From positions 1-64,000 of the forward strand of contig JAJUGR010000003.1 in assembly GCA_029265905.1 (NCBI GenBank): a stretch of DNA of 64,000 bases. Direction: 5' to 3'. The DNA comes from Sporomusaceae bacterium. Lineage in GTDB: Bacteria > Bacillota > Negativicutes > Acidaminococcales > JAJUGR01. The notes under the pieces were generated by a model, which was given only the letters and a program-made list of their open reading frames with translations, searched no databases and was not told the DNA's origin. Made by a program: the position numbers and the translations under genes. How positions within the stretch are numbered: position 1 is the stretch's first letter; every line of letters begins with the position of its first letter. This document shows positions 10,527-33,606 of this stretch, piece after piece.

Positions 10527-10561
10527 ACTCTTCACTCCTTGCTCTATTGATACGATCGTTA

Positions 10562-12141: not shown

Positions 12142-12158
12142 CAGCCTCCCCCTCCCCG

Positions 12159-16280: not shown

Positions 16281-16282
16281 GG

Positions 16283-18814: not shown

Positions 18815-18873
18815 CTTTCGTATACCTCCTCAATCTACTTGCTGCCATGCTGCTTGCCCCGCACTTGCCCTCC

Positions 18874-19203: not shown

Positions 19204-21445
19204 TTCGATCCCGTCCTTCCCTGAGCTTTGCCACCTTGACCAGCGTGGTCTTGTACGCGCCGCCGCCGTAGCCGGACTTGCTTTGCGTCCCGGTCGGGGT
19301 CAGCACGTTGCAGTTGACGTCCCAGATGCCGAACAATTTCGGCTCTTGTCCGGCCTGCTCGGGGAGCCACCAGCCGTGAGGCACGCTGACCACTTTAGGG
19401 TGAACAATCGGCGTCACGACCGCCTTACGCTTGATCCGCCCCTGGTCGTTCTCAATGCAGACCCATTCGCCATTTTCAATCCCTAGTGGTTTGGCCACAC
19501 TGGGATGGATCTCCACAATCGGATCCGGGTCGCATTCGCGCAGCCAAGGAATCATCCGGTGTTCAGAGTGGAAGTAAACGGACGAGCGCCGGCCGGTTAC
19601 CATGATCAGTGGATATTTTTCGTATTGCTCCGGCGTCCTGACTTCACTAGCCGGCGGTTCTGAGAAATAAGGCAAAGGATCGAGGCCCCACTCGGCGTAG
19701 CTGCGGCTGTAGAATTCCACCTTGCCGGACGGCGTGCGAAAACCAGGTTTGCCGTCGGGCCGCAACAGGCCCTTCTCATAACGCCGGTATGGCCGCGAGG
19801 CGCTGCCCCGCTCCGGCATGACCCAACCGCCAGCCTGCTTCAGTTCGTCATAGCTCGTACCGGCGACCTTCATCCGGTCGTTGATCAGATCCTTGACCGT
19901 CTCATAGCGTTTTTTGAGTTCCGGGTTGAACCGTTTAGCCAGCTCCAGGTTGATTTCCCAGTCAGACCGACATTCGCCGACCTGCACCGCCGGAGCGATC
20001 ACCTGCAGAGGCGCCCACCAGGAGCGGAAGCTTTCCTTCTCAGCAAAGGAAGCAACCGGCAAAATGATGTCGGCGACCGCCATCGATGTCGGGTTATGGA
20101 ACAGGTCGGCGACCACGACAAATTCCATCTTTTTTAAGGCCTCGTGATGAAGCCTGACGTCCACCGCCTGGCCGCCCAATATATTGCTCGTTTGAATCCA
20201 GCAAGCCTTGATCGGATATGGTTCGCCGCTCAGCATTTGCTGTACCGTCAAATCAGGCTGCGCCCATCCCCGGAAATTTCTGACCATCGCGTATTCGTTG
20301 GCGCCAATGCGTTTTTCGTTCAATCGCTTCACGAATTCTTCGCCGTACAATTCGTGCATCTCTTGGGTCGAGAAGGGATACGTCGTTACCCCGTGGGAAG
20401 GACGGGCGATGATATTTCCGCCTGGCACGTCCAGGTTTCCGGTCAGACACCACAAATGGCTGATCGCCTGCGCGACGGTCGAGCCTTCGGGATTCATATC
20501 AATCGGCACGCCCCAGTGGATGGCCGCCGGCTTGGCGCCGGCATACAGGCGCGCTGCAGCGATGATCGCATCTTGGGGCAACCATGTAATTTCCGCCACC
20601 CGTTCCGGCGTGTATTCGGCGGCCCGCGCCTTGAGTTCATCAAAGCCTTCTGTCCACGCTTCAACAAACGCCTTGTCATACAAATGCTCCTTGATAATCA
20701 CATGGATGAGTCCCAACGCGAGTGCGCCGTCCGTTCCCGGCCGAATTTGCAAAAACTGCTCTGCCCGCGAGGCAAACCAAGTCCAGCGCGGATCAATGAC
20801 GATCAATTTTGAGCCACGCTTCATGCAATCGACGATCCAGTGGCCGAAAAAGCCATCCGGACAACCCGGCATGGGATTTTGCCCCCAGATAACAATTACT
20901 TTTGGCAGTTCATATTCGGGGTCGTCATAGCGCAATTCAGAAAACTGCGCCGCATCCAGCACGGCATAATCCCCTTGAGTTGCCATCATCGCGCCCAGCC
21001 TCGGCGTATAGCAGGAGTGCCCGCCCAACCCCAACTGCACCCAGTTGGGACTGCCGTACGAGTAGGCCAAGAACGAAATCGGCCCGCCAATGTCGCGTCC
21101 GGTCCCCTGACAAAACAGCACCGCTTCCGGCCCGTGTTCATCTCTGATGCGCCCGAGTTTTTCCTCAATCGCATCAAGTGCCTCGTCCCAGGTGATTCGC
21201 TCAAACTTGCCCGTACCCCGCTCACCCACCCGCTTGAGCGGGTAGGTGATGCGATCCGGGTGATACATGTATTGCGTCATCGCCAACAAACGCGGACAGG
21301 CGCGTCCATTGCTGAACGGGTGCTGTTCGTCGCCTTCCACGCGCACGACCTTGTCATCCTGCACAAACAGCTTGACGCCGCAGCCGCCATGACAGCCAGG
21401 ACCGGGCGACCAGGCCGTCGAAGTAACAATTTTATCGTGTCCCAT
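19196..21445 (-). CDS. Acetylene-hydratase/catechol-dehydroxylase-like bis-MGD oxidoreductase
   Basis: A 749-residue DMSO-reductase-family enzyme. The N-terminal Fe-S site reads GPGCHGGCG with a later NGRACPR; the first Cys of the usual CxxCxxxC...C set is Gly15, so only three Cys are obvious. The likely Mo ligand is the Cys in GGHSCYTPR. Blocks such as TYPLKRVGERG, FERITWDEALDAIEEKL, GSPNW and YDKAFVEAW resemble acetylene hydratase from Pelobacter acetylenicus, the clade that also includes catechol dehydroxylases. In this operon a role in adding, moving or removing a ring hydroxyl, perhaps making or regenerating the tetrahydroxybenzene cosubstrate, is an inference. Start 21445 has GGGGAG. 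Confidence 0.8.
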   Translation of the reverse strand: MGHDKIVTSTAWSPGPGCHGGCGVKLFVQDDKVVRVEGDEQHPFSNGRACPRLLAMTQYMYHPDRITYPLKRVGERGTGKFERITWDEALDAIEEKLGRIRDEHGPEAVLFCQGTGRDIGGPISFLAYSYGSPNWVQLGLGGHSCYTPRLGAMMATQGDYAVLDAAQFSELRYDDPEYELPKVIVIWGQNPMPGCPDGFFGHWIVDCMKRGSKLIVIDPRWTWFASRAEQFLQIRPGTDGALALGLIHVIIKEHLYDKAFVEAWTEGFDELKARAAEYTPERVAEITWLPQDAIIAAARLYAGAKPAAIHWGVPIDMNPEGSTVAQAISHLWCLTGNLDVPGGNIIARPSHGVTTYPFSTQEMHELYGEEFVKRLNEKRIGANEYAMVRNFRGWAQPDLTVQQMLSGEPYPIKACWIQTSNILGGQAVDVRLHHEALKKMEFVVVADLFHNPTSMAVADIILPVASFAEKESFRSWWAPLQVIAPAVQVGECRSDWEINLELAKRFNPELKKRYETVKDLINDRMKVAGTSYDELKQAGGWVMPERGSASRPYRRYEKGLLRPDGKPGFRTPSGKVEFYSRSYAEWGLDPLPYFSEPPASEVRTPEQYEKYPLIMVTGRRSSVYFHSEHRMIPWLRECDPDPIVEIHPSVAKPLGIENGEWVCIENDQGRIKRKAVVTPIVHPKVVSVPHGWWLPEQAGQEPKLFGIWDVNCNVLTPTGTQSKSGYGGGAYKTTLVKVAKLREGRDRNG

Positions 21446-21468
21446 CGCAGCATCTCCCCAAGTTGTGT

Positions 21469-22248
21469 TTAGCCGATTGCCGTCAAGCCACCGTCCGGAT
21501 AAATGATATTGCCGGTCACAAACCCCGACGCGTCAGAGCAGAGGAATACAGCCGGCCCCACGCAGTCAAACGGCATCGCCATGCGCTTCATCGGCAATTG
21601 GTCAGCCATTTCCTGTCTGGCATTGGCGCCGCGGCTGTTTAAAATCTCGGTCATCATCGGTGTTTCCGTCACCGTCGGCCCGATGCCGTTAACGGTGATG
21701 TTGTATTTCCCAAACTCAGACGCCAACTGACGGGTTAGCATGTCGAGCGCGCCTTTCGTGCCGCAGTAGCCGGCGTTGCCCGCATGGCGGGTCGCGATCT
21801 TGCCGCGCACAGACGACAGGTTGACGATTTTTCCATAGCCATTTTCGATCATGTGCTTGCCAAAATGCTTGCAGCACATCATGACGCCGGTTACGTTGAC
21901 GTCCAGCATTTGCTTGAAGACGTCCATCGGGAAGGCTTCGGCATTGAATTTTTTGTTGAAGCCCTGGGCGTTGACCAGAATCTCAACCTTGCCAAAATCC
22001 TTGACCGACGACGCGACCAAAGCTTCGACGCTTTTTTCATCGGCCGCGTCTACCGTGTAGTAGCCGACGTCGCACCCGCTGGCTTCTTTTATTTCCCGTG
22101 CCGCTCGTTGCAGCGATTCAACATTGCGGCTGGCGATGGCAACCGTCGCCCCGGCTTGCGCCAAGCCTTGCGCAATCGACTGACCGATGCCACCGGCGCC
22201 GCCGACAACAACCGCATGCTTGCCTTTAAGTGAAAACAAATCCAACAT
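21469..22248 (-). CDS. SDR oxidoreductase, candidate phloroglucinol reductase
   Basis: A 259-residue classical short-chain dehydrogenase/reductase. Nucleotide site GGAGGIGQS (about 16-24), NAQG at about 93-96 (the usual NAG with one replacement), catalytic Ser in NLSSVRG and the YCGTK (YxxxK) pair, with a C-terminal YPDGGLTA. The NADPH-dependent phloroglucinol reductase of anaerobic bacteria is an SDR, and this gene lies directly upstream of the two Mo enzymes in the operon, so ring reduction of phloroglucinol to dihydrophloroglucinol is the favoured role. The alternative is a 3-hydroxyacid dehydrogenase step of the same pathway. Confidence 0.8.
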   Translation of the reverse strand: MLDLFSLKGKHAVVVGGAGGIGQSIAQGLAQAGATVAIASRNVESLQRAAREIKEASGCDVGYYTVDAADEKSVEALVASSVKDFGKVEILVNAQGFNKKFNAEAFPMDVFKQMLDVNVTGVMMCCKHFGKHMIENGYGKIVNLSSVRGKIATRHAGNAGYCGTKGALDMLTRQLASEFGKYNITVNGIGPTVTETPMMTEILNSRGANARQEMADQLPMKRMAMPFDCVGPAVFLCSDASGFVTGNIIYPDGGLTAIG

Positions 22249-22289
22249 CTCTCAACAGCTCCTTACCGTTTGACAGTTCATTGCAGCGT

Positions 22290-22799
22290 TCACACGCCAA
22301 TTTCCGCCTCATTGCTTTCTTCCACTTCATCAGGCGCTAACGCTTGCGCCAGATAAACAAGCGCCAAGAGGCCGAAGCCGAAAGCGCAGGCATATAAGAA
22401 AGGGAATTTCGGAATCGCGAGCACGGCCGACTCGGTTTTGGCCTGAATTTCGCTGCCGGCCTTAAGAAATGCCTGCCAGGCGAACAGCGCGTACGCTGCC
22501 GCGCCAACCAAGCTTACCAGCGCCTGCATCGCTTTTTGCAGCCCTGCCGGCAGCAGTTCGATCAGGCCGGGCACGTTAATGTGGGCATTGCGCACCTGCG
22601 TGTAGCCGATGGCGAACACGATCACCAGCCCCATGATGTACTCAACCAGTTCATACGAACCTTGCAGCGGAATGTTGAACAACGCGCGCCCGAAGATGTC
22701 GACGACCACCAACAGCACCATGACCAGCGTGAGACATAGCCCCGCCAGGTTCAAGCCAGCGCTCATTTTGTACACAGACCGCTTAAACGACACCAGCAT
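22290..22799 (-). CDS. TRAP transporter small permease (DctQ type)
   Basis: A 169-residue membrane protein with four hydrophobic helices and the DctQ hallmark DIFGRALFNIPLQGSYELVEYIM near residues 34-56. It is the small membrane component of a tripartite ATP-independent periplasmic transporter. Good ribosome site AGAGGTGG before ATG 22799. Encoded after the binding protein and the large permease, an unusual M-P-Q gene order. Confidence 0.9.
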   Translation of the reverse strand: MLVSFKRSVYKMSAGLNLAGLCLTLVMVLLVVVDIFGRALFNIPLQGSYELVEYIMGLVIVFAIGYTQVRNAHINVPGLIELLPAGLQKAMQALVSLVGAAAYALFAWQAFLKAGSEIQAKTESAVLAIPKFPFLYACAFGFGLLALVYLAQALAPDEVEESNEAEIGV

Positions 22800-22838
22800 A
22801 TTTCCACCTCTCTTTCAAGCACAGGCATGAAGCAAAAC

Positions 22839-23903
22839 TCATTGCTTGCCTCTGTATTTCTCAACCAATTTTTGTGTTTCCGCTAGTACGGCTTTGGCCG
22901 GCAAACTCTTTGCTTCTAAATCGATCGCCCATTTTTCCCAAATCGGCTGGGCCTTTTCGCGCCATCGCGCTTGCTCCGCCACGTCAGGCGTCAAAATCTT
23001 GCCGCCAGCCTTGGTGAACTTATCCGTAGACTTTTTCTTCGTCTCATCCCAGGCTCTGGCAAACAACTGGCTGGCCTTTTCGCCGCTCTCCTCGTCGAAA
23101 ATCTTCTGCTGTTCCGGCGTCAAGCTGTCCCAAGCTTTCTTGTTCATGATCAAAAAGAACGTGCCTGACGTGACATTGGCATCGAGCGAATACTTGGCGA
23201 CCTCCTGGAGGTTCAGCATCTCGACGGCCTCCCAGGCCATAACGCAACCGTCGATGACCCCTTTTTCCGTCGCCTGGTACGTGTCCGGCGCCGGCATCGC
23301 CATCGCCGCCGCCCCTAGCGACTGGATGTATGGAACAAGCGGTCCGCCGGCCGTACGCAACTTTTTGCCCTGCATGTCGTCAATGTTGTTGATCGGCTTG
23401 CGCGACGTCACCGGCGCACCGTCATGCGTATGGAGCGTCAGCACCTTGACGTCTTTGAATTCATTTTTGAGATAAGGCGAATTTTGATACAGGTCCCAGA
23501 CGACCTTGCTGCCCATAGTCGCCTTGTCCACGCCGAGCATCGGCAGGTTCAACACTTCCGTCATCGGAAACCGCCCCGGATAGTAGGCGATGTAGCTCCA
23601 GGCGATATCCGCCGTGCCTTTGACGACCGCGTCATAAGCGTCCTGAGGCTTAGCCAGGGTCGAAGAAGGATAAATGTCGATCTTTACCTGCCCGCCCGTT
23701 CTCTTTTCAATTTCTTTGGCCCAGGGCTCGAATCCATCCGTGCAGACAAAAGCGTTGGGCGGGTTATGGTGGGTAAATTTTAGACGCGTCACTTTCTTGC
23801 CGTCAGCCGCAGCGTCCTTGGACGCACCGCATCCGGCCAACAGACTTCCCGCCAGCATCATCGCCAAGGCGCCGGCTGCAACTATTTGCCATCGTTTTTT
23901 CAC
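22839..23903 (-). CDS. TRAP transporter substrate-binding lipoprotein (DctP type)
   Basis: A 354-residue binding protein with a lipoprotein signal (lipobox LLAGC, Cys about 25) and the DctP fold: FTHHNPPNAF at the mature start, KIDIYPSSTLAKPQDAYDAVVKGTADIAW, and MPAPDTYQATEKGVIDGC. GTG start 23903 follows AGGGGG. The TRAP system takes up an organic anion using an ion gradient; the operon context suggests an aromatic or ring-fission acid. The ligand Arg of carboxylate-binding TRAP proteins may be the Arg in KKLRTAGG. Confidence 0.9.
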   Translation of the reverse strand: MKKRWQIVAAGALAMMLAGSLLAGCGASKDAAADGKKVTRLKFTHHNPPNAFVCTDGFEPWAKEIEKRTGGQVKIDIYPSSTLAKPQDAYDAVVKGTADIAWSYIAYYPGRFPMTEVLNLPMLGVDKATMGSKVVWDLYQNSPYLKNEFKDVKVLTLHTHDGAPVTSRKPINNIDDMQGKKLRTAGGPLVPYIQSLGAAAMAMPAPDTYQATEKGVIDGCVMAWEAVEMLNLQEVAKYSLDANVTSGTFFLIMNKKAWDSLTPEQQKIFDEESGEKASQLFARAWDETKKKSTDKFTKAGGKILTPDVAEQARWREKAQPIWEKWAIDLEAKSLPAKAVLAETQKLVEKYRGKQ

Positions 23904-23952
23904 TTATTATTCCCCCTTACGTTTTTATAGCGCACCAGCCAAAGCCGGCAAC

Positions 23953-25254
23953 CTATACGAGCAATTTGGGCAGGAAAGTGGCCAGTTCCGGAATGACGAA
24001 CATCAGCGCCAGCATCCCGACGATCGCGCCCCAGTAAGGCCAGACGCCTTTATAAATGGTCTGCAGGCTAATGGTTTTGTCGACGCCGGCGATGATGAAG
24101 CAATTCATGCCGACCGGCGGGCAAACCATGCCCGAAGCCATGACCAGGACCAAAATCACACCGAACCAGTACGGGTCAAACCGCAGCGCCTGAATGACCG
24201 GGTAAAAAATCGGAATCGTCAATAGCAACATGCCGATTTCGTCCATGATCGCGCCGAGGAAGATGTACACTACGATGATGCCCAGCATTACCAGGTTGCG
24301 GTGGACCGGCAGGCTGGAAAAAAACGCGGCCATCTCGCCCGGCAGCCGCGAAACCGCCAAAAACTGATTGAAGATCATCGCGCCGATGATGATCATGAAG
24401 ATCATTGCCGACGTCTTGCCGGCATCCAGCAGTGACTTTTTGAGCATATCCACGCTCAGCTTCCGTCGAATCGCCGCCACGATAATTGCGCCGAACACGC
24501 CCATGGCCCCGCCCTCGTTGACGGTGAAAAACCCAGCCAACATGCCGCCGATCACAATCACAATCAAAACCAGCAAGTCCTTGACCGCGTACAGGGCGGC
24601 GAACCGTTCTTTCCAACTGCACTTCGGCCCCTTGGGTCCTAAATCAGGATTCCGCTTGATCATGATGTAAGCCACAATGATGTACAGCAGCATCAGCGTG
24701 CCGCCAGGAATAATGACGGCGGAAAACAGTTTGCCGATCGACAACGAGCACATCACGCCGTAAAGCATCAGCAATACGCTCGGCGGCACCATTGTACCCA
24801 ACGTGCCGGCGCAAGCCACGGTAGCGGCGGAAAAGCCGCCCTGGTAGCCAAACTTCTTCATCTCCGGCAAGGCGACGATGCCCATCGTCGCGGTCGTTGC
24901 TGTCGTCGAACCGCACAAAGCGCCAATTCCCGTGCAGGCCACAATGGTCGACATCCCCAGTCCGCCGGGCAGATGGCCCAGCCAGGTGTAGGCGGCCCGG
25001 TACATGTCATAGCTAAGTCCCGAGTGGTAGGCCAACTGGCCCATCAGAACAAACAGAACAATCACGCTGAGGCCGTAGTTAGCCATGCTGGAATATGGCG
25101 TTGTCTGGAGAATGCCCCATGCCGCATCCAGGTTTGTGACTGCCGCCATGCCGATGAAGCCTGCCACCGCCATGGCCGTGCCGATATGCACGCCCAAGAC
25201 GATCAAAACGATCATGGCGATCGTGCCAACAATGCCAATAGTTGTCGGATCCAC
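23953..25254 (-). CDS. TRAP transporter large permease (DctM type)
   Basis: A 433-residue integral membrane protein with about 12 helices. Signature regions include CTGIGALCGSTTATTATMG, CAGTLGTMVPPSVLLMLYG and the C-terminal VCPPVGMNCFIIAG. It forms the main translocation channel of the TRAP system together with the DctQ and DctP products encoded downstream. Start is GTG 25254 after GGGAGG, 12 bp beyond the dehydrogenase gene. Confidence 0.92.
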   Translation of the reverse strand: MDPTTIGIVGTIAMIVLIVLGVHIGTAMAVAGFIGMAAVTNLDAAWGILQTTPYSSMANYGLSVIVLFVLMGQLAYHSGLSYDMYRAAYTWLGHLPGGLGMSTIVACTGIGALCGSTTATTATMGIVALPEMKKFGYQGGFSAATVACAGTLGTMVPPSVLLMLYGVMCSLSIGKLFSAVIIPGGTLMLLYIIVAYIMIKRNPDLGPKGPKCSWKERFAALYAVKDLLVLIVIVIGGMLAGFFTVNEGGAMGVFGAIIVAAIRRKLSVDMLKKSLLDAGKTSAMIFMIIIGAMIFNQFLAVSRLPGEMAAFFSSLPVHRNLVMLGIIVVYIFLGAIMDEIGMLLLTIPIFYPVIQALRFDPYWFGVILVLVMASGMVCPPVGMNCFIIAGVDKTISLQTIYKGVWPYWGAIVGMLALMFVIPELATFLPKLLV

Positions 25255-25266
25255 AAATACGCCTCC

Positions 25267-26226
25267 CTAAATCTTTTCGTTAATCATCTCTTTTGTTTCC
25301 TTGAACACCTTCAAGAGCATTTTGTCGCGTTTTTGGCAAATTTCTGCCGCGCTGCGTCCGCCGTAATCAAAAAAGCCTTTGCCGGTTTTGACGCCCAATT
25401 CGCCTTTGTCGACATGGTCGAACAGCGCTTTTGGACGCTTGCTTGTTTCCGGCATGACGTAGCTGGCGTTCGTGATGTTGTTGGCACTGATGTCAAGACC
25501 GGTGAAATCATACCGCTGGACCAATCCCAGCACCATACCGCGCGGCATGAGGCTTGCCTTGACCGCCAAATCAATCTGTTCCGGCGTGCAGATGCCGTTG
25601 TCGAGCAAGTAGAACACCTCTGTGTTCAGCAAAATCTGAATCCGGTTGATGATGTATCCCGGAACAAATTTTTCAAGCCGGACCGCCGTCTTGCCGCAGT
25701 TGTTCAGCAGGTGGATCGTGGTCTCCATCGTCTCCTCAGAAGTCGCTTCCCCTTTGGCCACTTCCACCAGCGGAATGATGTGCGGCGGTGCATACCAATG
25801 CGCCGTAGTGAACATTGCCAATCGGCGCTCCGGAGCAAACTTGAAGGGATTGAGCGAGGATGCGTTGGAGGCAACAATCACGTTCTCCGGCAGCAATTTG
25901 TCCAACTCCTCAAACAAAGCCACCTTCACGTCCGGTTTTTCCGCCACAGTTTCCTGCACGAACTGCGCACCATCAACCGCTTCGGCAACCGTCCGGCAAT
26001 ACGAAATACGGTCCAAAACCCGCTTCGCAGCATCAGACGCCAAGAGTCCTTCCTCCACAAACGTATCCAGGTTGGCATGCAGCATGACTTTCGCTTTTTC
26101 CATCGTGCTTTCACTTCTGGTATACAACGTGACGTCATAACCACCCATGGCATAGTTTTGCGCAATGCCTGGCCCCATGGTTCCGGCTCCCAGCACGGCT
26201 ATTTTTTTCACATCTTCAATTTTCAT
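25267..26226 (-). CDS. 3-hydroxyacyl-CoA dehydrogenase-like, candidate 3-hydroxy-5-oxohexanoate dehydrogenase
   Basis: A 319-residue protein of the 3-hydroxyacyl-CoA dehydrogenase superfamily. NAD site VLGAGTMGPGIAQ at residues 12-24, NASSLN, the catalytic-region HWYAPPHIIPLVEV and NRIQ in the C-terminal helical domain, ending GVKTGKGFFDYGG. The start is ATG 26226 with AAGGAG; the frame upstream is noncoding. In the phloroglucinol pathway the ring-opening product 3-hydroxy-5-oxohexanoate is oxidised to triacetate by an NAD-dependent dehydrogenase, and this is the best candidate here. A normal 3-hydroxybutyryl-CoA dehydrogenase is the alternative. Confidence 0.78.
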   Translation of the reverse strand: MKIEDVKKIAVLGAGTMGPGIAQNYAMGGYDVTLYTRSESTMEKAKVMLHANLDTFVEEGLLASDAAKRVLDRISYCRTVAEAVDGAQFVQETVAEKPDVKVALFEELDKLLPENVIVASNASSLNPFKFAPERRLAMFTTAHWYAPPHIIPLVEVAKGEATSEETMETTIHLLNNCGKTAVRLEKFVPGYIINRIQILLNTEVFYLLDNGICTPEQIDLAVKASLMPRGMVLGLVQRYDFTGLDISANNITNASYVMPETSKRPKALFDHVDKGELGVKTGKGFFDYGGRSAAEICQKRDKMLLKVFKETKEMINEKI

Positions 26227-26266
26227 AAACGTCTCCTTCGGTTCTCCCCTTGAACCAAGCATATTA

Positions 26267-26602
26267 TTAACAATTGGCAACAATGACCAGAACCCTGGCC
26301 GCGACAACCCCGTTAACCGCCATATCGCGTTTTTCCCCAGGCGCGATATAGATCATGTCTCCTGCATCTAACATGTGGGCCTGTCCGTGCTCATCATTGA
26401 CGGTAATGGAGCCTCTCAGCACACAGTAGATGCGCTCCTTATCCGACGCGGTCATGGCCGCGCCGCCGTTAGGCAGGAATTCTGAAATGGAAACATTGAC
26501 GGTCTTCGCACCGTCGGGCGGGCCGAATTTTCGCACGCCCCACATATTGAAATGATGTTGGGCTTCGTAGACGCTTCCTTCATTGGCCTTAATCACTTTC
26601 AT
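26267..26602 (-). CDS. Cupin-domain protein
   Basis: A 111-residue single-domain cupin. The first motif region reads ERIYCVLRGSITVN and the second MLDAGDMIYIAPGEKRDM; the usual metal-binding His residues are mostly absent, so it may bind a ligand without metal. The start at 26602 is set by GGAGGT eight bases upstream. It is the second gene of the catabolic operon, between DUF3870 and the dehydrogenase. Roles such as isomerisation of a ring-fission product or substrate sensing are possible; I cannot choose. Confidence 0.75.
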   Translation of the reverse strand: MKVIKANEGSVYEAQHHFNMWGVRKFGPPDGAKTVNVSISEFLPNGGAAMTASDKERIYCVLRGSITVNDEHGQAHMLDAGDMIYIAPGEKRDMAVNGVVAARVLVIVANC

Positions 26603-26688
26603 GGTCATTCACCTCCCCTCAAGTACGCTATTGAATGGAATTTTTATACGCAGGCCCGCCCTAATGACGAGCCGACGATGCCGGCGCT

Positions 26689-27018
26689 TTACCAAGGATG
26701 CATATTATTCTTTTTGTATACGGCATAACGATTTTGCAAAGTCTGCACGGCAGAAATCAGCGCCCACTTCGACAACGAATGCATGCGCGAATCGATCTCT
26801 GCGATAATCAAGTCTAGGTCATTAGAAAGGTTTTTCCCGATCAGAATCTCGGCAACAAAATCGCCGCTTTCCCGACAATAAATCGGAACTTCACAATCGA
26901 GAATTGTCCCGTTTCGCACATCCACCTTGGCAACAACCGTGATGTACTTGTAATTCTCATGGATGTCCGATCCTTCCGCCAGTTGAGCGTGGCCGGAAAA
27001 AATGTGGATATATTTCAT
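26689..27018 (-). CDS. DUF3870 protein, copy 1 (first gene of catabolic operon)
   Basis: A 109-residue protein of the DUF3870 family (begins MKYIHIFSGHAQLAEGSDI; conserved YKYITVVAKVD, LDCEVPIYCRESGDFVAEIL, HSLSKWALISAVQTLQNRY). The family is small and of unknown function. Start 27018 follows AAAGGAGG. It lies directly downstream of the two tandem leader RNAs, so it is the first protein made when they permit transcription. A paralogue sits at 27381-27773, at the end of the Moco operon. Confidence 0.75.
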   Translation of the reverse strand: MKYIHIFSGHAQLAEGSDIHENYKYITVVAKVDVRNGTILDCEVPIYCRESGDFVAEILIGKNLSNDLDLIIAEIDSRMHSLSKWALISAVQTLQNRYAVYKKNNMHPW

Positions 27019-27052: not shown

Positions 27053-27157
27053 AAAAAAGCAAGCCAAACCCAAAACACGACCAAAGCTGATCGTGAGCTG
27101 AGCTAGGCTTGCTTACTCAATATCGGAATTTTGTTCCGATACCATAACCAAGCGACT
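27053..27157 (-). ncRNA. Leader RNA element A (candidate ON riboswitch with terminator)
   Basis: The minus-strand RNA starts AGUCGCUUG. P1 pairs GCUUG (27153-27149) with CAAGC (27111-27107); P2 is an 8-bp stem (27141-27134 with 27128-27121, loop CAAAA). The internal loop has UAUGG on one side and GAGUA on the other. The 3' strand of P1 is also the 5' arm of a terminator, AAGCAAGCC (27114-27106) against GGCUUGCUU (27065-27057) followed by six U. P1 and terminator exclude each other, so stabilising P1 should allow transcription. It is about 95% identical to element B upstream and shares the core with element C at 33466-33586. Confidence 0.75.
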
Positions 27158-27221
27158 CTCGTTTGTCGCATATGCAATTTGTGTCCATTTTCACATGCCC
27201 GAGCCTAAGTTGCTCGCACAA

Positions 27222-27327
27222 AATAAAAAGCAAGCCAAACCCGAACACGACCAAAGCTGATCGTGAACTGAGCTAGGCTTGCTTACTTAATATCGGAATT
27301 TTGTTCCGATACCATAATCAAGCGACT
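27222..27327 (-). ncRNA. Leader RNA element B (first of the tandem pair)
   Basis: A near-identical copy of element A, displaced by 171 bp. P1 is 27323-27319 with 27281-27277, P2 is UAUCGGAA with UUCCGAUA, and the terminator arms are 27284-27276 and 27236-27228 followed by UUUUUAUUUU. It begins about 26 nt after the predicted start of transcription from the promoter at 27360-27388. Polymerase must pass B and then A before the DUF3870 gene. The only differences from A are a handful of bases in loops and linker, so the duplication is recent or under conversion. Confidence 0.75.
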
Positions 27328-27359
27328 CCTGAAAAGCCATCTGTTTTTTATACATTTTC

Positions 27360-27388
27360 ATTATAGTCAGTTTTTTCTGTCTAGTCAA
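27360..27388 (-). promoter_or_regulatory. Sigma-A promoter of the polyhydroxybenzene operon
   Basis: On the minus strand TTGACT (27388-27383) and TATAAT (27365-27360) are separated by exactly 17 bp, close to consensus. It overlaps the stop codon of the upstream DUF3870 copy 2 and is followed within about 30 nt by leader element B. No other promoter as good was seen before the end of the operon at 6260. Confidence 0.8.
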
Positions 27389-27773
27389 CAACTTTTCTTT
27401 CGAGTTTCTTTTCCCGCTGAACGCTCTTTCGCACTGGCCCGACACAGACGACGTTGGCCTGCTGGTTTTTGCAAACAACATAACGATTGTAAGCCGCCTG
27501 CAAGGCGGTGATCAGGGCCCGCGTCGACAGACTGTGCACCGTTTCTTCAATTTCCGCAATAATCGACGAGATATCTTTGTCCAAACACTTGCCACGCAAA
27601 ATGTCGGCGACGAAATCATTGTGCATTTTGCAATAATTCGGGATCACGCAGTCAAGCACCTCGCCCGTCTCCATGTTGACAGTCAAAACGATCGTTGCGT
27701 AACGGCATGTTTCGTACAGATCAGTGCCAACGGGCAGTTGGCCATGCCCGGAAAAAAGATGGACCTTTTTCAC
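27381..27773 (-). CDS. DUF3870 protein, copy 2 (end of Moco operon)
   Basis: A 130-residue DUF3870 paralogue: VHLFSGHGQLPVGTDLYE, YATIVLTVNM, LDCVIPNYCKMHNDFVADIL and HSLSTRALITALQAAYNRY align with copy 1, and a basic 30-residue tail (SVQREKKLERK) is added. The start is GTG 27773 with AGGAGGG eight bases upstream. It lies 173 bp after mobA with no clear terminator between, so it may be the last gene of the Moco operon. Its presence at both RNA-controlled operons suggests a role linked to the same signal. Confidence 0.75.
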   Translation of the reverse strand: MKKVHLFSGHGQLPVGTDLYETCRYATIVLTVNMETGEVLDCVIPNYCKMHNDFVADILRGKCLDKDISSIIAEIEETVHSLSTRALITALQAAYNRYVVCKNQQANVVCVGPVRKSVQREKKLERKVVD

Positions 27774-27946: not shown

Positions 27947-28531
27947 TCACTGTCTTCGCCTTTGCTTTTGTTCAGCCAATACATAGTCACCGGGAGAATT
28001 GATGTTGGTAAATATTTCGTCCGCCTGCTCGCCAGGAAAGATATCCGCCATGTCAACGCCCAGCATACTTACCCGGGGAAAAATGTCCAATGGGCAGGTT
28101 CGCCCTTGCTCCAGCAACTGTGTGATAACCGGCAGACAGGCAGAACGCGAATACCAGGCACATAATGGCTCGCAGCCTTGCGAATGAACGGGCAGCACAA
28201 CATCTGCCTGTTGCGCTAACCCAGCCAAATAACGTAAAACGGCCACCGGCAACAACGGCATGTCGCAAGCAACGACCAAGGCTCCGGCCGACATCGTTTC
28301 CGCTAGACCGGCATGCAGTCCGGCCAACGGGCCAACTCCGCTATAGCGATCAGTTGTCCAGCGTACTTTTCTCCCTAATGGTCGCGGTTGCCCCACAACA
28401 ATGATGTCACTGCAAATACAAGCCAACTTATCGACCATTGCCGATAAAAACGTGCCGCCGCTCCACGGCAGAACCGCTTTATCCGAACCCATGCGCCGAC
28501 TTTTTCCACCCGCCAATACGATTCCTGTCAT
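27947..28531 (-). CDS. mobA: Molybdenum cofactor guanylyltransferase
   Basis: A 194-residue nucleotidyltransferase with the MobA signature at the N-terminus, LAGGKSRRMGSDKA (residues 5-18), and DMPLL further on. It links GMP from GTP to Mo-molybdopterin to give the MGD form required by the DMSO-reductase-family enzymes encoded nearby. Start 28531 after GGGGTG. Last recognised cofactor gene in the operon, 21 bp after the MOSC gene. Confidence 0.92.
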   Translation of the reverse strand: MTGIVLAGGKSRRMGSDKAVLPWSGGTFLSAMVDKLACICSDIIVVGQPRPLGRKVRWTTDRYSGVGPLAGLHAGLAETMSAGALVVACDMPLLPVAVLRYLAGLAQQADVVLPVHSQGCEPLCAWYSRSACLPVITQLLEQGRTCPLDIFPRVSMLGVDMADIFPGEQADEIFTNINSPGDYVLAEQKQRRRQ

Positions 28532-28552
28532 ATGCCGCACCCCAACTGCCTG

Positions 28553-28990
28553 CTAACGCAGCACGCATATTTCGTCACCCGCCTGAATCCAGCCTGGCGC
28601 AATCACTTTGGCAAAAATGCCTTCTCTAGGCATAATGCAGTCGCCAACTTTTTGCCTTATTGCGCAACCAGCGTGGCACTCCTTGCCGATCTGCGTCACT
28701 TCCAACACCACGGCCTTGCCAACGGCCAACGTTGTGCCTACCGGCAGCGAAAACAGCTCCAAACCTTCGGTGGTAATGTTTTCGGCAAAATCGCCCAAAG
28801 CCAAATCGGCTAGCCCTTTTTCTTTCATTTTATTGATGCTTTCCACGCCAAGCAGGCTCACCTGCCGGTGCCAAGCGCCGCCATGCGCATCGTTTTCCAA
28901 CCCCCAGTCTATACTGAAATGCCCCTTCGCAATCGGTTGCTTTGGCACCCCCTTAGACTCACTGATATTCACCGCTACTACAGCTGCCAT
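28553..28990 (-). CDS. MOSC-domain protein
   Basis: A 145-residue stand-alone MOSC (Moco sulfurase C-terminal) domain. The conserved Cys sits in GKECHAGCAIRQKVGDC; LGDFAENIT and MPREGIF are also typical. Such proteins are placed with moaC/mogA in many anaerobes and are thought to bind molybdopterin or carry sulfur. The ribosome site GGAGGCG lies in the end of the moaC-mobB gene, which stops 3 bp before this start. Confidence 0.88.
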   Translation of the reverse strand: MAAVVAVNISESKGVPKQPIAKGHFSIDWGLENDAHGGAWHRQVSLLGVESINKMKEKGLADLALGDFAENITTEGLELFSLPVGTTLAVGKAVVLEVTQIGKECHAGCAIRQKVGDCIMPREGIFAKVIAPGWIQAGDEICVLR

Positions 28991-28993
28991 GTC

Positions 28994-29998
28994 TTACGCC
29001 TCCTCACCAAGGTTGGTATCAGGAAATTTGTTTTCCGCCGAAAGAAACCGCTCGATGATGAATTCGGCGACCAAGTCATAGTCATCCAAGGAAAATACGG
29101 GCACATCGACCTCCAGTTCTGTTACATCCGTAGCAACAGCCACTAAATTGTCTCCGCTCGTCGCTAACTGTGTCCCCTTTTCCCGCCTCACGACTTCAAT
29201 AACAGGCCTTCCGGCGCGCTTGAACCCTTCCACAAGCAAAAGATCGACGCCCTCTACCTTTTCAGCCGCACTGCTTAATGTCATTTTATCACCGGTCTTT
29301 TGCATCAGCGCCCATTGATCAGGTCCAATAATGGCGGTTGCCTTGGCGCCGGCTTGGGTGAAGCGCCAGGTGTCCTTTCCCGGAACGTCAATTTCAAAAC
29401 CGTGGCAGTCTCCTTTTATTGCGCCAACCCGATAGCCGCGTCCTGACAGTTTACGGATCAAGTTTTCCATCAGCGTCGTCTTCCCCGTTTTAGAACAGCC
29501 TGACGCGATGCAAACAACAGGTACTTGGCGTCGTCGCACATGACCGGTTTTCCCTCCGCGCTTTTCCATCAACCGAATCTCGCTGATCGTCATCCAGCGG
29601 TCAACGGCCTTGCACATGTCATAAATCGTCATCGCCGCTACGCTCGCGCCGTGGATCGCTTCCATTTCAACACCGGTTTGCCCGTTTGTTTTTACCGCAC
29701 ACTCGACCACCACCCGCGCGGCCTCCGAATCAAATGAAAAGGAAAAATCAACCGCCGTCAGCATCAACGGATGGCACATCGGAATCGCCGCCGACGTATG
29801 TTTAGCCGCCATTACGCCTGCAACCTGGGCCACAGCCAGGACATCCCCTTTTTTAACGCCGCCTTTTTGAATCGCCACCAGCGTTTCCGGCTGCATATTC
29901 ACCACTGCCTGAGCGATAGCAATGCGGTTTGTGTTTTGTTTGCCACCCACATCAACCATTTTCGCCCGGCCGCTTTGATTAAAATGCGTGAACTCCAT
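28994..29998 (-). CDS. MoaC-MobB fusion: cyclic pyranopterin monophosphate synthase plus GTP-binding Mob protein
   Basis: A 334-residue fusion. Residues 1-155 are MoaC (MVDVGGK, MCHPL, GVEMEAIHGASVAA, YDMCKAVD), which completes cyclic pyranopterin formation after MoaA. Residues 158-334 are MobB with Walker A GCSKTGKTTL and the later VEGFKR, a GTP-binding adaptor in MGD synthesis. The start is ATG 29998, six bases after AGGAGG; GTG 30004 is in frame but too close. The junction (KRGGKTGHVRRRQ) is basic and looks like a linker. It follows moaA by 2 bp. Confidence 0.92.
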   Translation of the reverse strand: MEFTHFNQSGRAKMVDVGGKQNTNRIAIAQAVVNMQPETLVAIQKGGVKKGDVLAVAQVAGVMAAKHTSAAIPMCHPLMLTAVDFSFSFDSEAARVVVECAVKTNGQTGVEMEAIHGASVAAMTIYDMCKAVDRWMTISEIRLMEKRGGKTGHVRRRQVPVVCIASGCSKTGKTTLMENLIRKLSGRGYRVGAIKGDCHGFEIDVPGKDTWRFTQAGAKATAIIGPDQWALMQKTGDKMTLSSAAEKVEGVDLLLVEGFKRAGRPVIEVVRREKGTQLATSGDNLVAVATDVTELEVDVPVFSLDDYDLVAEFIIERFLSAENKFPDTNLGEEA

Positions 29999-30000
29999 CT

Positions 30001-30981
30001 TCACCCTCCTATTTGATACATCTTTCGTGAATTATCCGCTCCCCAGCCCTTCTCCATGTGATGGCGGTCAGGTTTCTCACGAATCGCCTGCCGGATCATG
30101 ATCGCCAGCCTGTCATCGCCAGTGCCCCTATCCATGGCCGCTTTCACATTGATTTCCCGCTTGTCAAACAGACAGCTGCGCAGCCGTCCGTCGGCCGTCA
30201 GGCGAATGCGGTTGCAATCACCGCAAAAATGGTTGCTCATGGCGCTGATAAAGCCGATCGTTCCTTTTCCGCCGGCGATTTGATACACTTTTGCAGGTCC
30301 GTTGCCGCGCCCAGCCAAACCGTTTAGAAGTTGATACGACGACTTTATTGTCCGTTTGACTTCATCCATATTCACTAAACGCTCCTCTTGGTAAAACGGC
30401 AAATCTCCGACCGGCATAAATTCAATAAAGCGGACATGCACAGGCATTTCAGCCGCCAGGCGCGCAAAATCCAGTATTTCATCATCGTTGACGCCCTTCA
30501 TGACAACCGTATTGATCTTCACCGGCATCATGCCGATCGCCAGCGCTTTTTCAATCGACCGCCACACGTCGCTTATATTGCCTAGCCGGGTGATGTAACG
30601 GAAGCGGTCCGCATGCAAGCTGTCCAAGCTGAAATTAACCCGAACCAGCCCGGCTCGCTTCAAGTCATCCGCCATATCGGCAAAGCAAATCCCATTTGTC
30701 GTCAGCGAAACATCCTGCATTCCCGGCATGGATGAGACAGCCTCAATCAGCTTGACAATATCCTTGCGCACCAAGGGCTCACCGCCCGTAAAGCGGACCT
30801 TGCGCACGCCGCACTCCGCCGCCAGTTTTACTAGGCGAATAATTTGTTCAAAAGTCAAAATACGCTCGTGCCCGCTGTCTTGAATCCCTTCCGCCGGCAT
30901 GCAGTATTGGCACCGCAAGTTGCAGCGGTCGGTAACCGACACCCGCAGATAATTAATTTCACGTCCGTAGCAATCCATCAT
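30001..30981 (-). CDS. moaA: GTP 3',8-cyclase (radical SAM)
   Basis: A 326-residue MoaA. The SAM cluster Cys20, Cys24 and Cys27 lie in TDRCNLRCQYC; the second cluster is formed by FCGDCNRIRL and the later RSCLF. RFTGGEPLVRKDI is the GGEP motif and the protein ends in Gly-Gly as required for activity in known MoaA proteins. It carries out the first step of Moco synthesis. Oxygen-sensitive clusters fit the anaerobic setting. Preceded by AAGGAG. Confidence 0.95.
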   Translation of the reverse strand: MMDCYGREINYLRVSVTDRCNLRCQYCMPAEGIQDSGHERILTFEQIIRLVKLAAECGVRKVRFTGGEPLVRKDIVKLIEAVSSMPGMQDVSLTTNGICFADMADDLKRAGLVRVNFSLDSLHADRFRYITRLGNISDVWRSIEKALAIGMMPVKINTVVMKGVNDDEILDFARLAAEMPVHVRFIEFMPVGDLPFYQEERLVNMDEVKRTIKSSYQLLNGLAGRGNGPAKVYQIAGGKGTIGFISAMSNHFCGDCNRIRLTADGRLRSCLFDKREINVKAAMDRGTGDDRLAIMIRQAIREKPDRHHMEKGWGADNSRKMYQIGG

Positions 30982-31029
30982 CGTCCATCACGCTCCTTCC
31001 TAACCCATCTTACCAAGGCGGTTATTTGC

Positions 31030-32268
31030 CTACTCGTCGACATCTTGAATTTTTCCAACGACATGAGCCAGCACGGTTTCTCCGGCAGCAAGCGCGCCGC
31101 TACCGGCCGGAATATCGACAAACAAATTACATTCCGCCATGGATTTTAACGCGCTGTTGGTTTGCATCCCCATCAGCCTAATCCACAGCCTACCGCTTTC
31201 CGTGAGCAGCTTTGCCCGCAGAAAACGCCTCTGTTCGCTGGCTTTGTGAAAACCATTCACCAGCGTCCCCTGCAGTCTCGAATAAAAATATTTATTATAA
31301 CCCATCATCTTTTTTAAAAGCGGCACGGCCAGCAAATCAAAGGTAATCATTGCCGCCACCGGATTGCCCGATAAACCGATGATCATTTTCCCGTCTTTAA
31401 CAGCCGCCAGCATCGGAGACCCCGGCTTTATATCGACCCGCCAAAACAAGATGCTGGCGCCAAGCGTTTCTACCGCGTCTTTGACCAGATCATAGTCGCC
31501 GACCGAAACCCCACCGGTCGTGATGACAACGTCCGCCGCCGCAAGGCCCTCTTCTATGCGCGCGGCAATCTGCGCCCGGCAGTCAGGCACGTTCGCCAAC
31601 AGTACCGGATCGATGCCCAATTCCTTGCAGCGCGCCTGCAACGTGTGTCGGTTGCTGTCGTAAATTTTCCCCAGCGTCAGCGGCTCATCCAAGCCGACTA
31701 ATTCGTCTCCTGTGCTGATGATCGCCGCTTTAATGGGCTCATAAACATAAAGCGTCTTGATGCCCTGTTCCGCCAATAGACCGATAATAGCCGCCGTAAC
31801 TATCGTTCCTTGCTTCGCCAGCATTTCGCCATGCTTAATATTCTCGCCTATATGCACGACGTTGTTGCGCGCCCGCAGCGGCTGAAAAACATGAATCAAA
31901 TTGCCGTCTACAAAAACGTCTTCCTGCTTGACCACCACGTCAGCACCTTCCGGGATAGGCGCGCCAGTCAGCACCTTAGCCGCCGTCCCCCCCGTTACAG
32001 TCTTTGCCGCAGCGCGGCCAGCCGGAATCTCTTCAATCACCCATAGTGTGACTGGCTGCGTAGGTTGGGCCGACATTGTGTCGCAAGCGCGAAGCGCATA
32101 GCCATCAAGCGGTGAACGGTCAAATGAAGGCAGGCTTTGTGCAGCCACCACGTCACGACTGACAATCCGTCCCAGCGCTTCGCCAATCGACAACTCGCAC
32201 TCACCAGGGCTGGTTGCTCGCTCCAACAGCAAATGCTGCGCTTCTTCCAACGAAATATTCTGTCTCAC
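31030..32268 (-). CDS. moeA: Molybdopterin molybdenumtransferase
   Basis: A 412-residue MoeA with all parts: SFDRSPLDGYALR near residue 45-57, the VKQEDV region, the MoCF-binding domain with ISTGDEL and TTGGVSVGDYD, then GLSGNPVAAM and a C-terminal beta domain. It inserts molybdate into adenylated molybdopterin. I set the start at GTG 32268 because AGGAGG is seven bases before it; the ATG at 32274 is only one base from the site. A second, shorter MoeA-like gene precedes it. Confidence 0.92.
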   Translation of the reverse strand: MRQNISLEEAQHLLLERATSPGECELSIGEALGRIVSRDVVAAQSLPSFDRSPLDGYALRACDTMSAQPTQPVTLWVIEEIPAGRAAAKTVTGGTAAKVLTGAPIPEGADVVVKQEDVFVDGNLIHVFQPLRARNNVVHIGENIKHGEMLAKQGTIVTAAIIGLLAEQGIKTLYVYEPIKAAIISTGDELVGLDEPLTLGKIYDSNRHTLQARCKELGIDPVLLANVPDCRAQIAARIEEGLAAADVVITTGGVSVGDYDLVKDAVETLGASILFWRVDIKPGSPMLAAVKDGKMIIGLSGNPVAAMITFDLLAVPLLKKMMGYNKYFYSRLQGTLVNGFHKASEQRRFLRAKLLTESGRLWIRLMGMQTNSALKSMAECNLFVDIPAGSGALAAGETVLAHVVGKIQDVDE

Positions 32269-32279
32269 GTTCATTCCTC

Positions 32280-33299
32280 CTACACTCCAATTCCAAATGT
32301 GCAATTGGGATAATGGCAAACCTCGCACTGCAGGCACAGCCCGCCTAAACCAAACCCGGCAAGGCGTTCCTTGGTGATCGCTACATCGGCTAATACAAAA
32401 GGCAACAGCAAGTCCAGCGCCGATACCTTCGAGAACATGACACCCCCCGGCAGTCCTAGGATCGCCCGTTCGCCCAAATAAGCGACCAGCGTCATCGCCC
32501 CGGGCAAAATCGGCGTTCCGTACGTGACGACAGCCGCCCCTGCCTGCCGGATGCCTAGCGGAGTTACGTCATCCGGATCAACCGACATCCCGCCAGTCGT
32601 CAAAATCAGCTCCGCTCCATTGCCTATTAGCTTGCGGATCTCCCGCGCAATCTCGTCCGCATCATCCGGACAAAACACCTGCTCCGCCACTGCGCAGCCG
32701 TATTCCGCCAGCTTCGACTGCAAAAACGGCCCAAACTTATCTTGGATCAGCCCATGATACACTTCGTTGCCAGTCGTCACGACGCTGATTTTGGGCCGCT
32801 TTAGCGGCAAGACATCGACGAGGCCATCCGAACAGATTGCCTCCACTTGTTCGATCAGGCTTTGCTCAACAACCAACGGAATCGCCCGCAGTCCAGCAAC
32901 GATTTCGCCCTTTTTCACCAGCCGAAAATTGCTTCGCGTTGCGATCATCACGTCCGAAAGCATATTGACCGCTTTGAGACGAGCTTCGTCAATGACGCAC
33001 AGCCCATCATATTGCGCCCGCAGCATGATCTTGCCTTCCGCCGGTTCCCCGTAATCAATGCCGACGCCGACCGCTGCACAGGCCATTCTCAGCGCAGCCT
33101 CGTCCTCGTGCAATCGTCCTCCGGTTTCTTCCCAGATATAAATATGTTCCTTGCCCAATCTGCGCAATTCAGGGATGTCCTCCTTGGTAATCACATGCCC
33201 GCGCCGATACGCCCGCCCCTTGAACTCTCCGGGCACAATTCTCGTCATGTCGTGGCAGCAAACGCAATTGACCGCTTCTTCGATCCGAATTTTCTTCAC
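32280..33299 (-). CDS. MoeA-like molybdopterin-binding protein with C-terminal Cys motif
   Basis: A 339-residue protein of the Firmicute molybdopterin-binding group related to MoeA/CinA. The N-terminus reads IRIEEAVNCVCCHDMTRIVPGEFKG; the MoCF domain has VVTTGNEVYHG and LTTGGMSVDPDDVTP, and LGLPGGVMFSK. The last 25 residues carry C-x2-C-x2-C-x4-C (LCLQCEVCHYPNC), a possible metal or cluster site. It is first in the Moco operon, behind leader RNA element C, and starts with GTG 33299. Its exact step, possibly metal selection or sensing, is unknown. Confidence 0.85.
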   Translation of the reverse strand: MKKIRIEEAVNCVCCHDMTRIVPGEFKGRAYRRGHVITKEDIPELRRLGKEHIYIWEETGGRLHEDEAALRMACAAVGVGIDYGEPAEGKIMLRAQYDGLCVIDEARLKAVNMLSDVMIATRSNFRLVKKGEIVAGLRAIPLVVEQSLIEQVEAICSDGLVDVLPLKRPKISVVTTGNEVYHGLIQDKFGPFLQSKLAEYGCAVAEQVFCPDDADEIAREIRKLIGNGAELILTTGGMSVDPDDVTPLGIRQAGAAVVTYGTPILPGAMTLVAYLGERAILGLPGGVMFSKVSALDLLLPFVLADVAITKERLAGFGLGGLCLQCEVCHYPNCTFGIGV

Positions 33300-33465: not shown

Positions 33466-33586
33466 TTGAAAAAAAAGAAACAAGCCCAGCTTTAAGAACA
33501 CAGCAAACAGACATGCTGTGCCTTGCAAAAGCTAGGCTTGTCTACTCTGTATCTGAATGTGCTTCAGATACCATATACAAGCGACT
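33466..33586 (-). ncRNA. Leader RNA element C (same class as A and B) before the Moco operon
   Basis: The minus-strand RNA has the same core: GUCGCUUG, UAUGGUAUC, then GAUACAGAGUAGACAAGCCUAGCU. P1 is 6 bp (33582-33577 with 33541-33536). P2 is 8 bp (33570-33563 with 33557-33550, loop GCACA); one P2 pair is U-A here and G-C in A and B, a compensatory change. The terminator has a 14-bp outer stem (33541-33528 with 33493-33480) and an inner CACAGCA hairpin, followed by UUUCUUUUUUUU. Its outer sequences differ from A and B but keep pairing. P1 again overlaps the terminator 5' arm. Confidence 0.75.
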
Positions 33587-33606
33587 TTGAAAGAAACCGT
33601 ATTTTC

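What the first reader, a model, noticed from the sequence alone, without database searches (positions are those of the whole stretch)
27053..27327. Tandem, nearly identical leader RNAs in front of a 21-kb catabolic operon
Seen: two copies of about 100 nt, about 95% identical and 171 bp apart, each with a two-stem core (P1 GCUUG/CAAGC, 8-bp P2, internal loop UAUGG/GAGUA) whose P1 3' strand is also the 5' arm of a terminator with U-tract. A near-consensus promoter lies just upstream. Inference: a cis-regulatory RNA that antiterminates when P1 is stabilised, used twice in series, which would sharpen or combine responses. I do not recognise the class. The known Moco riboswitch is larger and looks different; the rare Moco-II motif is a comparison I could not make.
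Basis: partly seen in the sequence, partly recalled or inferred. Interest (0 to 1): 0.92.

Follow-up and report, generated by a model that had tools for sequence, protein, structure and literature searches.

The report
Polyphenol-operon antiterminator RNAs paired with DUF3870
Two copies of a previously undescribed RNA on/off switch sit in front of genes that let an anaerobic bacterium ferment plant polyphenols; the same switch recurs before such genes in other bacteria, and a small protein of unknown function (DUF3870) encoded beside it is the likely partner that throws the switch.

Summary
Two ~105-nt leaders (95% identical) follow a strong promoter; each has an antiterminator hairpin sharing a strand with an intrinsic terminator. 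A third copy precedes the molybdenum-cofactor operon. Rfam has no match. A covariance model found about 50 copies in 11 genomes of the class (window included) and one in another class, with strong covariation, near-universal terminator overlap and recurring tandem copies. Controlled genes are the trihydroxybenzene (pyrogallol/phloroglucinol) pathway, transporters, chemoreceptors and Moco synthesis. Several operons hold no Mo gene, so Moco is probably not the signal.

New lead: every genome with this leader carries one clade of DUF3870, usually just upstream of a leader. Other DUF3870 clades are followed by different attenuators of the same architecture, and leader class tracks protein clade. 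I propose that DUF3870 stabilises these antiterminators, as LicT does RAT, in response to a pathway compound. That step is inference. Against it: a large DUF3870 clade has no leader, three genomes carry class II leaders without the matching DUF3870, and the predicted fold weakly resembles IscU, not a known RNA binder.

The parts
27360..27388 (-). Promoter TTGACT-17-TATAAT in front of leader A
   Evidence: 11 of 12 consensus matches; lies between the upstream DUF3870 gene and leader A
27266..27332 (-). Leader A antiterminator hairpin (P0, P1, UAU/GUA, P2), class I
   Evidence: R2 hit 83.1 bits, E 2.9e-18; covariation
27220..27284 (-). Intrinsic terminator of leader A with U-tract; its 5' arm AAGCAAGCC contains the 3' strand of P1
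   Evidence: folds; U-tract UUUUUAUUUU
27096..27162 (-). Leader B antiterminator hairpin, class I (tandem partner)
   Evidence: R2 hit 78.5 bits
27050..27114 (-). Intrinsic terminator of leader B with U-tract
   Evidence: folds; U-tract UUUUUUCUU
26689..27018 (-). DUF3870 protein, 109 aa (ATG at 27018), first gene after the tandem leader
   Evidence: Pfam PF12986 4.6e-19; clade I of the tree; AlphaFold pLDDT 88
27381..27773 (-). Second DUF3870 protein (GTG at 27773), last gene of the Moco operon, directly upstream of leader A
   Evidence: PF12986 9.4e-16; translation checked
33525..33591 (-). Leader C antiterminator hairpin, class I, before the Moco operon
   Evidence: R2 hit 70 bits
33469..33540 (-). 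Intrinsic terminator of leader C with U-tract
   Evidence: folds
27947..33299 (-). Moco operon under leader C: MoCF_biosynth protein, moeA, moaA, moaC-mobB, MOSC, mobA (then DUF3870)
   Evidence: Pfam
6260..26608 (-). Trihydroxybenzene catabolic operon: cupin, HCDH, TRAP transporter, SDR, Mo oxidoreductase + ferredoxin, transhydroxylase large and small subunits, thiolase, MFS, CoA-transferase, BKACE, two cyclases, MFS, thiolase
   Evidence: Pfam; matches the phloroglucinol pathway of PMC10470551

Best explanation
The finding is a tandem pair of transcription attenuators of a previously undescribed class (class I). RNA polymerase starts just upstream. In each unit either a strong terminator forms (the default) or a long bulged antiterminator hairpin (P0-P1-P2) forms and takes the terminator's 5' arm. 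When trihydroxybenzenes (polyphenol breakdown products) are being fermented, a trans-acting factor stabilises the hairpin and transcription runs on into the catabolic operon; the same element switches on Moco synthesis, transporters and chemoreceptors as one regulon. The factor is most likely the DUF3870 protein encoded next to the leaders, which might bind the two asymmetric 1x3 internal loops much as LicT binds RAT. Two units in series would lower leakiness and steepen the response. Shown here: mutually exclusive structures (covariation and folding), the regulon, and the DUF3870 linkage. Inferred: antitermination by stabilisation, DUF3870 as RNA-binding factor, the nature of the signal, the effect of the tandem.
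For: Structure: 21 pairs, 95% of cells paired, 60 double-change cells against 15.7+-4.0 in shuffles, slid controls far lower; RNAalifold finds P0, P1 and P2 unaided. Terminator overlap at 46 of 51 class I sites by a strict test. Regulon. Carriers include Sporomusa silvacetica and CTSoil_079-082; CTSoil_80-82 express phloroglucinol reductase and other phenolic enzymes under condensed-tannin amendment (PMC8084988). DUF3870: all 11 class I genomes of the class, and G679 of another class, carry a clade I protein, mostly directly 5' of a leader. Other clades carry other leaders of the same design: 28 of 30 clade II rows (f2/g2 offshoot left out) and 9 of 9 clade III rows; 15 label changes on the tree against 47.8 shuffled. 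Class II covaries. All 26 genomes with an intact clade II gene (offshoot left out) also have the class II leader. Class-blind test on DUF3870 genes of other classes, not chosen for leaders: 12 of 31 are followed by a distant terminator with strong competing upstream pairing, against 8 of 260 control genes (Fisher 1.7e-8).
Against: No experiment exists; RNA binding by DUF3870 is not shown. The largest DUF3870 clade (about 60 rows, several near miaB- or TSUP-like genes) has no leader, so RNA binding would be derived or the function lies elsewhere. Genomes G287, G296 and G313 carry class II leaders with no clade II DUF3870. The divergent f2/g2 offshoot of clade II lacks the leader. The predicted fold is weakly IscU-like (best PDB match E 1.7e-3, TM 0.56), not a known RNA-binding fold, and clade I proteins are slightly acidic. 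Linkage could also mean that both answer to the same metabolite. Related genomes are not independent, so the Fisher values overstate the case.
Confidence: 0.58

Rival explanations
1. A true metabolite riboswitch: the class I hairpin itself binds a polyphenol-pathway compound and antiterminates. DUF3870 is a linked pathway or ligand-handling protein.
For: Same covariation and terminator overlap; conserved letters in and around the loops (UAYG, AGUA, CUAGCU); orphan class II leaders without a matching DUF3870; DUF3870 members without leaders.
Against: The element is one bulged hairpin without junction or pseudoknot; class II can be as short as about 35 nt (GCUGCUUCAUUUAUCAUGCGUAAAUGAAAUCCAGC), small for an aptamer. 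Several RNA classes each tied to one clade of a single protein family are hard to explain by separate aptamers.
Confidence: 0.22
2. A different trans-acting factor (ANTAR protein, other RNA-binding protein, or a small RNA) works on these leaders, and DUF3870 is only a linked gene.
For: An ANTAR protein is present in all 12 class I genomes searched; orphan class II leaders.
Against: ANTAR sites need two hairpins whose loops carry A1 and G4 (PMC3369936); here there is one hairpin with a loop of usually 5 nt. The BglG-type RNA-binding domain is absent from 11 of 12 of these genomes. Leader class tracks DUF3870 clade.
Confidence: 0.13
3. Moco- or molybdate-sensing riboswitch.
For: Leader C precedes the Moco operon in the window, and Moco genes follow leaders in G302 and G299; the transhydroxylase needs Mo.
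Against: No match to Moco or Moco-II in Rfam. Moco RNAs have up to five stems with a GNRA tetraloop and receptor (PMC2408646). Leaders also precede HCDH-BKACE-SDR, PTB-IorA, MFS, MCP and URO-D genes in operons where no Mo gene was found.
Confidence: 0.04
4. Leader-peptide attenuation: a mini-ORF (MVSEQNSDI[K/E]*) spans P2 and its translation decides between the hairpins.
For: All three window copies have an AUG and an in-frame stop around P2.
Against: 13 of 51 homologues lack the AUG; where present the ORF has 4, 9, 10 or many codons and no conserved peptide, while P2 covaries as a helix.
Confidence: 0.03

Closest known systems
BglG/LicT/SacY antiterminators and RAT elements
   Same: Antiterminator hairpin mutually exclusive with a terminator; [quoted passage not shown] Regulator genes flanked by their own target leaders, as in L034 (leader, DUF3870, tandem leader, DUF3870); that the bgl operon is laid out likewise is from memory.
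   Different: Different sequence; no CAT_RBD protein in 11 of 12 genomes; no known PTS link; the candidate factor is DUF3870.
ANTAR antitermination (NasR, EutV)
   Same: Protein-directed antitermination of several operons by one factor.
   Different: ANTAR sites are two hairpins with A1/G4 loops (PMC3369936); here one hairpin, loop usually 5 nt.
Moco riboswitch and Moco-II motif
   Same: Precede Moco genes; a triple arrangement with separate expression platforms is described for Moco RNAs (PMC2408646).
   Different: No Rfam match; no P1-P5 fold with GNRA tetraloop and receptor; regulon mostly non-Mo.
HutP-type small ligand-dependent antiterminators (from memory)
   Same: A small single-domain protein that would sense a metabolite and act on a terminator in front of a catabolic operon.
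   Different: DUF3870 has no sequence match in the PDB at E<=10, and HutP is not among the 50 best structure matches listed, which point weakly to IscU.

Membership tests
Rfam RNA families, Moco and Moco-II included | Covariance-model score at or above gathering | tested here: not met
   Only the TPP riboswitch at 38139-38246 in the window; eight loci with class I, II or III leaders: none
Moco riboswitch | Up to five stems with GNRA tetraloop and receptor | tested here: not met
   Consensus is a single bulged hairpin against PMC2408646
Transcription attenuator (antiterminator/terminator) | Antiterminator and terminator share a strand and exclude each other | tested here: met
   46 of 51 sites strict; z -6.5 to -6.8 in the window
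Transcription attenuator (antiterminator/terminator) | Signal-dependent read-through | not testable with these tools
   needs in vitro transcription or reporters
BglG/LicT-RAT | CAT_RBD protein in the genome | tested here: not met
   Absent from G000 and 10 of the 11 other genomes searched
ANTAR target | Two hairpins, loops with A1 and G4 | tested here: not met
   One hairpin, loop usually 5 nt, by inspection of the alignment; ANTAR proteins themselves are present
DUF3870 (PF12986) | Pfam score above gathering for both window proteins | tested here: met
   68.9 and 58.3 bits against 22
DUF3870 as RNA-binding antiterminator | Binds the leader and promotes read-through | not testable with these tools
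   only genomic linkage and clade-class agreement were tested
IscU/NifU_N fold | Significant sequence or structure match | tested here: inconclusive
   Foldseek E 1.7e-3, TM 0.56 to 1q48; hhalign pairwise E 0.009-0.18
Phloroglucinol degradation cluster | SDR reductase, cyclase, HCDH and BKACE genes together | tested here: met
   window 21469-22248, 9720-10535, 25267-26307, 10562-11404; PMC10470551

The most novel reading that the evidence does not exclude
DUF3870 is the founding family of a phylum-wide, modular antitermination system. Each leader-linked clade of this small, possibly IscU-like protein binds its own antiterminator hairpin and senses its own catabolic signal: polyphenols for class I, other (amino-acid-related or organic-acid) substrates for the other classes.
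Probability: 0.5. Interest if true: 0.9.

Novelty: new variant of a known kind. Interest (0 to 1): 0.8.

Why it matters
If true, it gives a function to an unstudied protein family (no paper on DUF3870 function was found in the library searched) and adds a new protein-controlled antitermination system beside BglG/LicT and ANTAR, with several RNA target classes ready for testing. It also supplies the likely regulatory switch for anaerobic polyphenol fermentation, a process tied to carbon storage in peat and to gut metabolism of tannins and flavonoids (PMC10470551, PMC8084988). The leaders are convenient markers for finding unrecognised polyphenol genes.

Tried and rejected
Moco or molybdate ligand: rejected on regulon content and lack of an Rfam match. 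Leader peptide: rejected, ORF not conserved. BglG/CAT factor: rejected, domain absent from 11 of 12 genomes. ANTAR target: the structure does not fit, though the protein is present. Two hits of the named-genome pattern scan outside Negativicutes (a Bacteroidetes MAG, an Erythrobacter) gave no R2 match and are taken as chance. The G317 hit has no such terminator and was dropped; the L058 hit has none either and is doubtful. Two weak phylum hits, G716 and G731 (E about 0.03), were not followed. The PDB has no DUF3870 sequence match; the viral structure library gave nothing. Searches failed for input errors. An alternative reading, DUF3870 as an obligate partner of class II leaders, is not strictly met. 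Energies alone prove nothing: terminators are more stable than antiterminators at nearly all sites, consistent with default termination.

Full report
OBSERVATION. On the - strand the window carries two near-identical leaders (A 27225-27332, B 27052-27162; 95.2% identical over 105 columns) and a third copy C (33462-33591). Each folds with z about -6.5 to -6.8 against dinucleotide shuffles. Covariation adds a helix P0 (RAGU/GCUY) below P1 and resolves the 'internal loop' into a UAU/GUA helix, leaving two asymmetric 1x3 loops (N/CUA and G/NNA). No Rfam family matches.

SURROUNDINGS. The genes from 33299 down to 6260 that have Pfam matches are all on one strand. Leader C precedes a Moco operon that ends in a DUF3870 gene (27381-27773). 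Then come the promoter, leaders A and B, a second DUF3870 gene (26689-27018), a cupin, a hydroxyacyl-CoA dehydrogenase, a TRAP transporter, an SDR, a Mo oxidoreductase with ferredoxin, a pyrogallol hydroxytransferase-like large subunit and its small subunit, thiolases, CoA-transferase, BKACE and two cyclases. This is the set known for phloroglucinol degradation (reductase, dihydrophloroglucinol cyclohydrolase, dehydrogenase, triacetate acetoacetate-lyase; PMC10470551) plus the Mo transhydroxylase that makes phloroglucinol from pyrogallol. Phloroglucinol induces the pathway genes 4.2- to 5.7-fold in Clostridium scatologenes (PMC10470551); that organism was not examined here for this leader.

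HOMOLOGUES. A model from the three copies (R1) found 51 hits in 12 of 381 genomes of the class. One (G317) was rejected and one weak extra site was added, giving 51 sites in 11 genomes. The window's family holds no other genome. Up to 11 sites per genome were reported. Named carriers are Sporomusa silvacetica DSM 10669, Sporomusa sp. KB1, the CTSoil_079 to _082 MAGs and two Selenomonadales MAGs. A phylum-wide search with R2 added one clear hit in another class, G679 (48 bits). The terminator overlap holds at 46 of 51 sites by a strict test (structures). In the 47-sequence alignment 95% of cells pair, with 60 double-change cells against 15.7+-4.0 shuffled and far lower values in slid controls. 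Tandem copies also occur in G302, G309, G311 and G312, so the serial arrangement occurs in three families.

REGULON. Genes after class I leaders: the pathway operon in several arrangements, PTA/PTB and butyrate-kinase-like genes, an IorA-type oxidoreductase, MFS, SSF, TRAP and TctA transporters, URO-D methyltransferase-like proteins, methyl-accepting chemotaxis proteins, an SLH protein, and Moco synthesis (window, G302, G299). In several of these operons no Mo gene was found, so the common signal is more likely an aromatic or pathway compound than Moco. CTSoil_80-82 (family UBA7701) express phloroglucinol reductase, indolepyruvate oxidoreductase and other phenolic enzymes under condensed-tannin amendment (PMC8084988).

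DUF3870. Every class I genome has DUF3870 proteins of one clade. In most cases the gene ends about 25 to 150 nt before a leader; the others lie inside leader-controlled operons. DUF3870 as a whole is broader (77 of 381 genomes). Reading the DNA after other DUF3870 genes showed further leaders of the same design but different sequence. Class II: GCUG-C-UUYAUUUA...UAAAUGAA-AUC-CAGC, whose CAGC strand opens the terminator. Class III: GUYUUAUUUAU-U-GGU...ACC-GAG-AUA...AAGAC. All three have a 1x3 asymmetric loop between two helices. On a tree of 131 domains leader class follows clade: 15 changes against 47.8 shuffled. Class II leaders follow 28 of 30 rows of one clade (its divergent f2/g2 offshoot of 7 left out), class III all 9 rows of another, class I belongs to a third, and a clade of about 60 (FSGYAKLPTGITASE) has none (one 'I' label in that clade, and the labels of L151 and L092 in clade III, are errors of my regular expressions). 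The tree rests on about 100 columns and many forks are unresolved. Class II covaries: 17 double-change cells against 5.7+-3.1. Across 381 genomes, 26 have both the class II leader and an intact clade II gene, 3 have the leader alone, and none has an intact clade II gene alone outside the offshoot. In G298 the DUF3870 gene has an internal stop and its leader is truncated. In other classes of the phylum DUF3870 genes again precede class II leaders or a further type (GGCCAUUUAUCUG...CGGAUAAUGUGCGGCC, here called class V); the genes after the latter look like CoA-transferases from the first translated residues, not from a database search. A class-blind energy test, on these 31 genes not chosen for leaders, finds a distant terminator with unusually strong competing upstream pairing after 12, against 8 of 260 control genes (Fisher 1.7e-8) and 4 of 53 of the leaderless clade. 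The test is crude and relatives are not independent.

MECHANISM. Default: the terminator (about -31 to -53 kcal/mol at most sites) outcompetes the antiterminator (about -11 to -27). Induced: a factor stabilises P0-P1-P2 and read-through follows. The antiterminator is a bulged hairpin with two asymmetric loops, as in the LicT target (PMC3369936), and class II examples of about 35 nt are small for an aptamer. The gene next to the leaders points to DUF3870 as the factor. The BglG RNA-binding domain is absent from 11 of 12 genomes. ANTAR proteins are present but the RNA lacks their paired A1/G4 loops. AlphaFold gives DUF3870 a confident domain of three strands and several helices (pLDDT 88) whose nearest solved structure is IscU at E 1.7e-3; profile comparison with NifU_N is weak. 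That fold has no RNA-binding role known to me, which tempers the claim. The aligned clade I proteins keep two cysteines (CxxPxYC) and a histidine, so a metal or cluster is possible.

ALTERNATIVES. A small-molecule riboswitch with DUF3870 as a bystander is the main rival; three genomes with orphan class II leaders favour it a little. Leader-peptide control is unlikely. Moco sensing is unlikely.

VERDICT. Real, conserved, and not in Rfam. As a mechanism it belongs to a known kind (antitermination); the RNA classes and the proposed protein partner are new.

Noticed in passing
window 38139-38246: TPP riboswitch (RF00059, 69.6 bits) near thiamine-type genes; ordinary.
   Followed up: no
L065, L069-L082, L084-L088, L090, L091, L130, L134, L144, L148, L149, L160: Class II leaders (GCUGCUUYAUUUA...UAAAUGAAAUCCAGC) after clade II DUF3870 genes; in the loci scanned, near MR_MLE, DcuC, Asp/Glu racemase or amidohydrolase genes.
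   Followed up: yes
L089, L092, L135, L139-L141, L143, L151, L156: Class III leaders (GUYUUAUUUAUUGGU...ACCGAGAUA) after clade III DUF3870 genes.
   Followed up: partly
L254, L257, L262, L271 (possible relatives L256, L264, L265, L270): Further leader type (GGCCAUUUAUCUG...CGGAUAAUGUGCGGCC) after DUF3870 genes in other classes of the phylum.
   Followed up: partly
L123 (G298): DUF3870 gene with an internal stop next to a truncated class II leader: both look decayed together.
   Followed up: no
window 19196-21445 with 18874-19203: Second Mo oxidoreductase (749 aa) with a small ferredoxin, kept near the transhydroxylase gene in G302, G289, G290 and G679; function unknown, perhaps another hydroxyl-transfer or dehydroxylation step.
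   Followed up: no
window 26689-27018 (model m52ccded81fa3): Predicted DUF3870 fold weakly like IscU (1q48); clade I keeps CxxPxYC and a histidine, so a metal or Fe-S site is possible.
   Followed up: partly
window 27283-27315 and 27113-27145: Mini-ORF MVSEQNSDI[K/E]* spans P2 in the tandem copies; not conserved elsewhere.
   Followed up: yes
L223, L224, L225: Class II leaders in genomes without a clade II DUF3870.
   Followed up: partly
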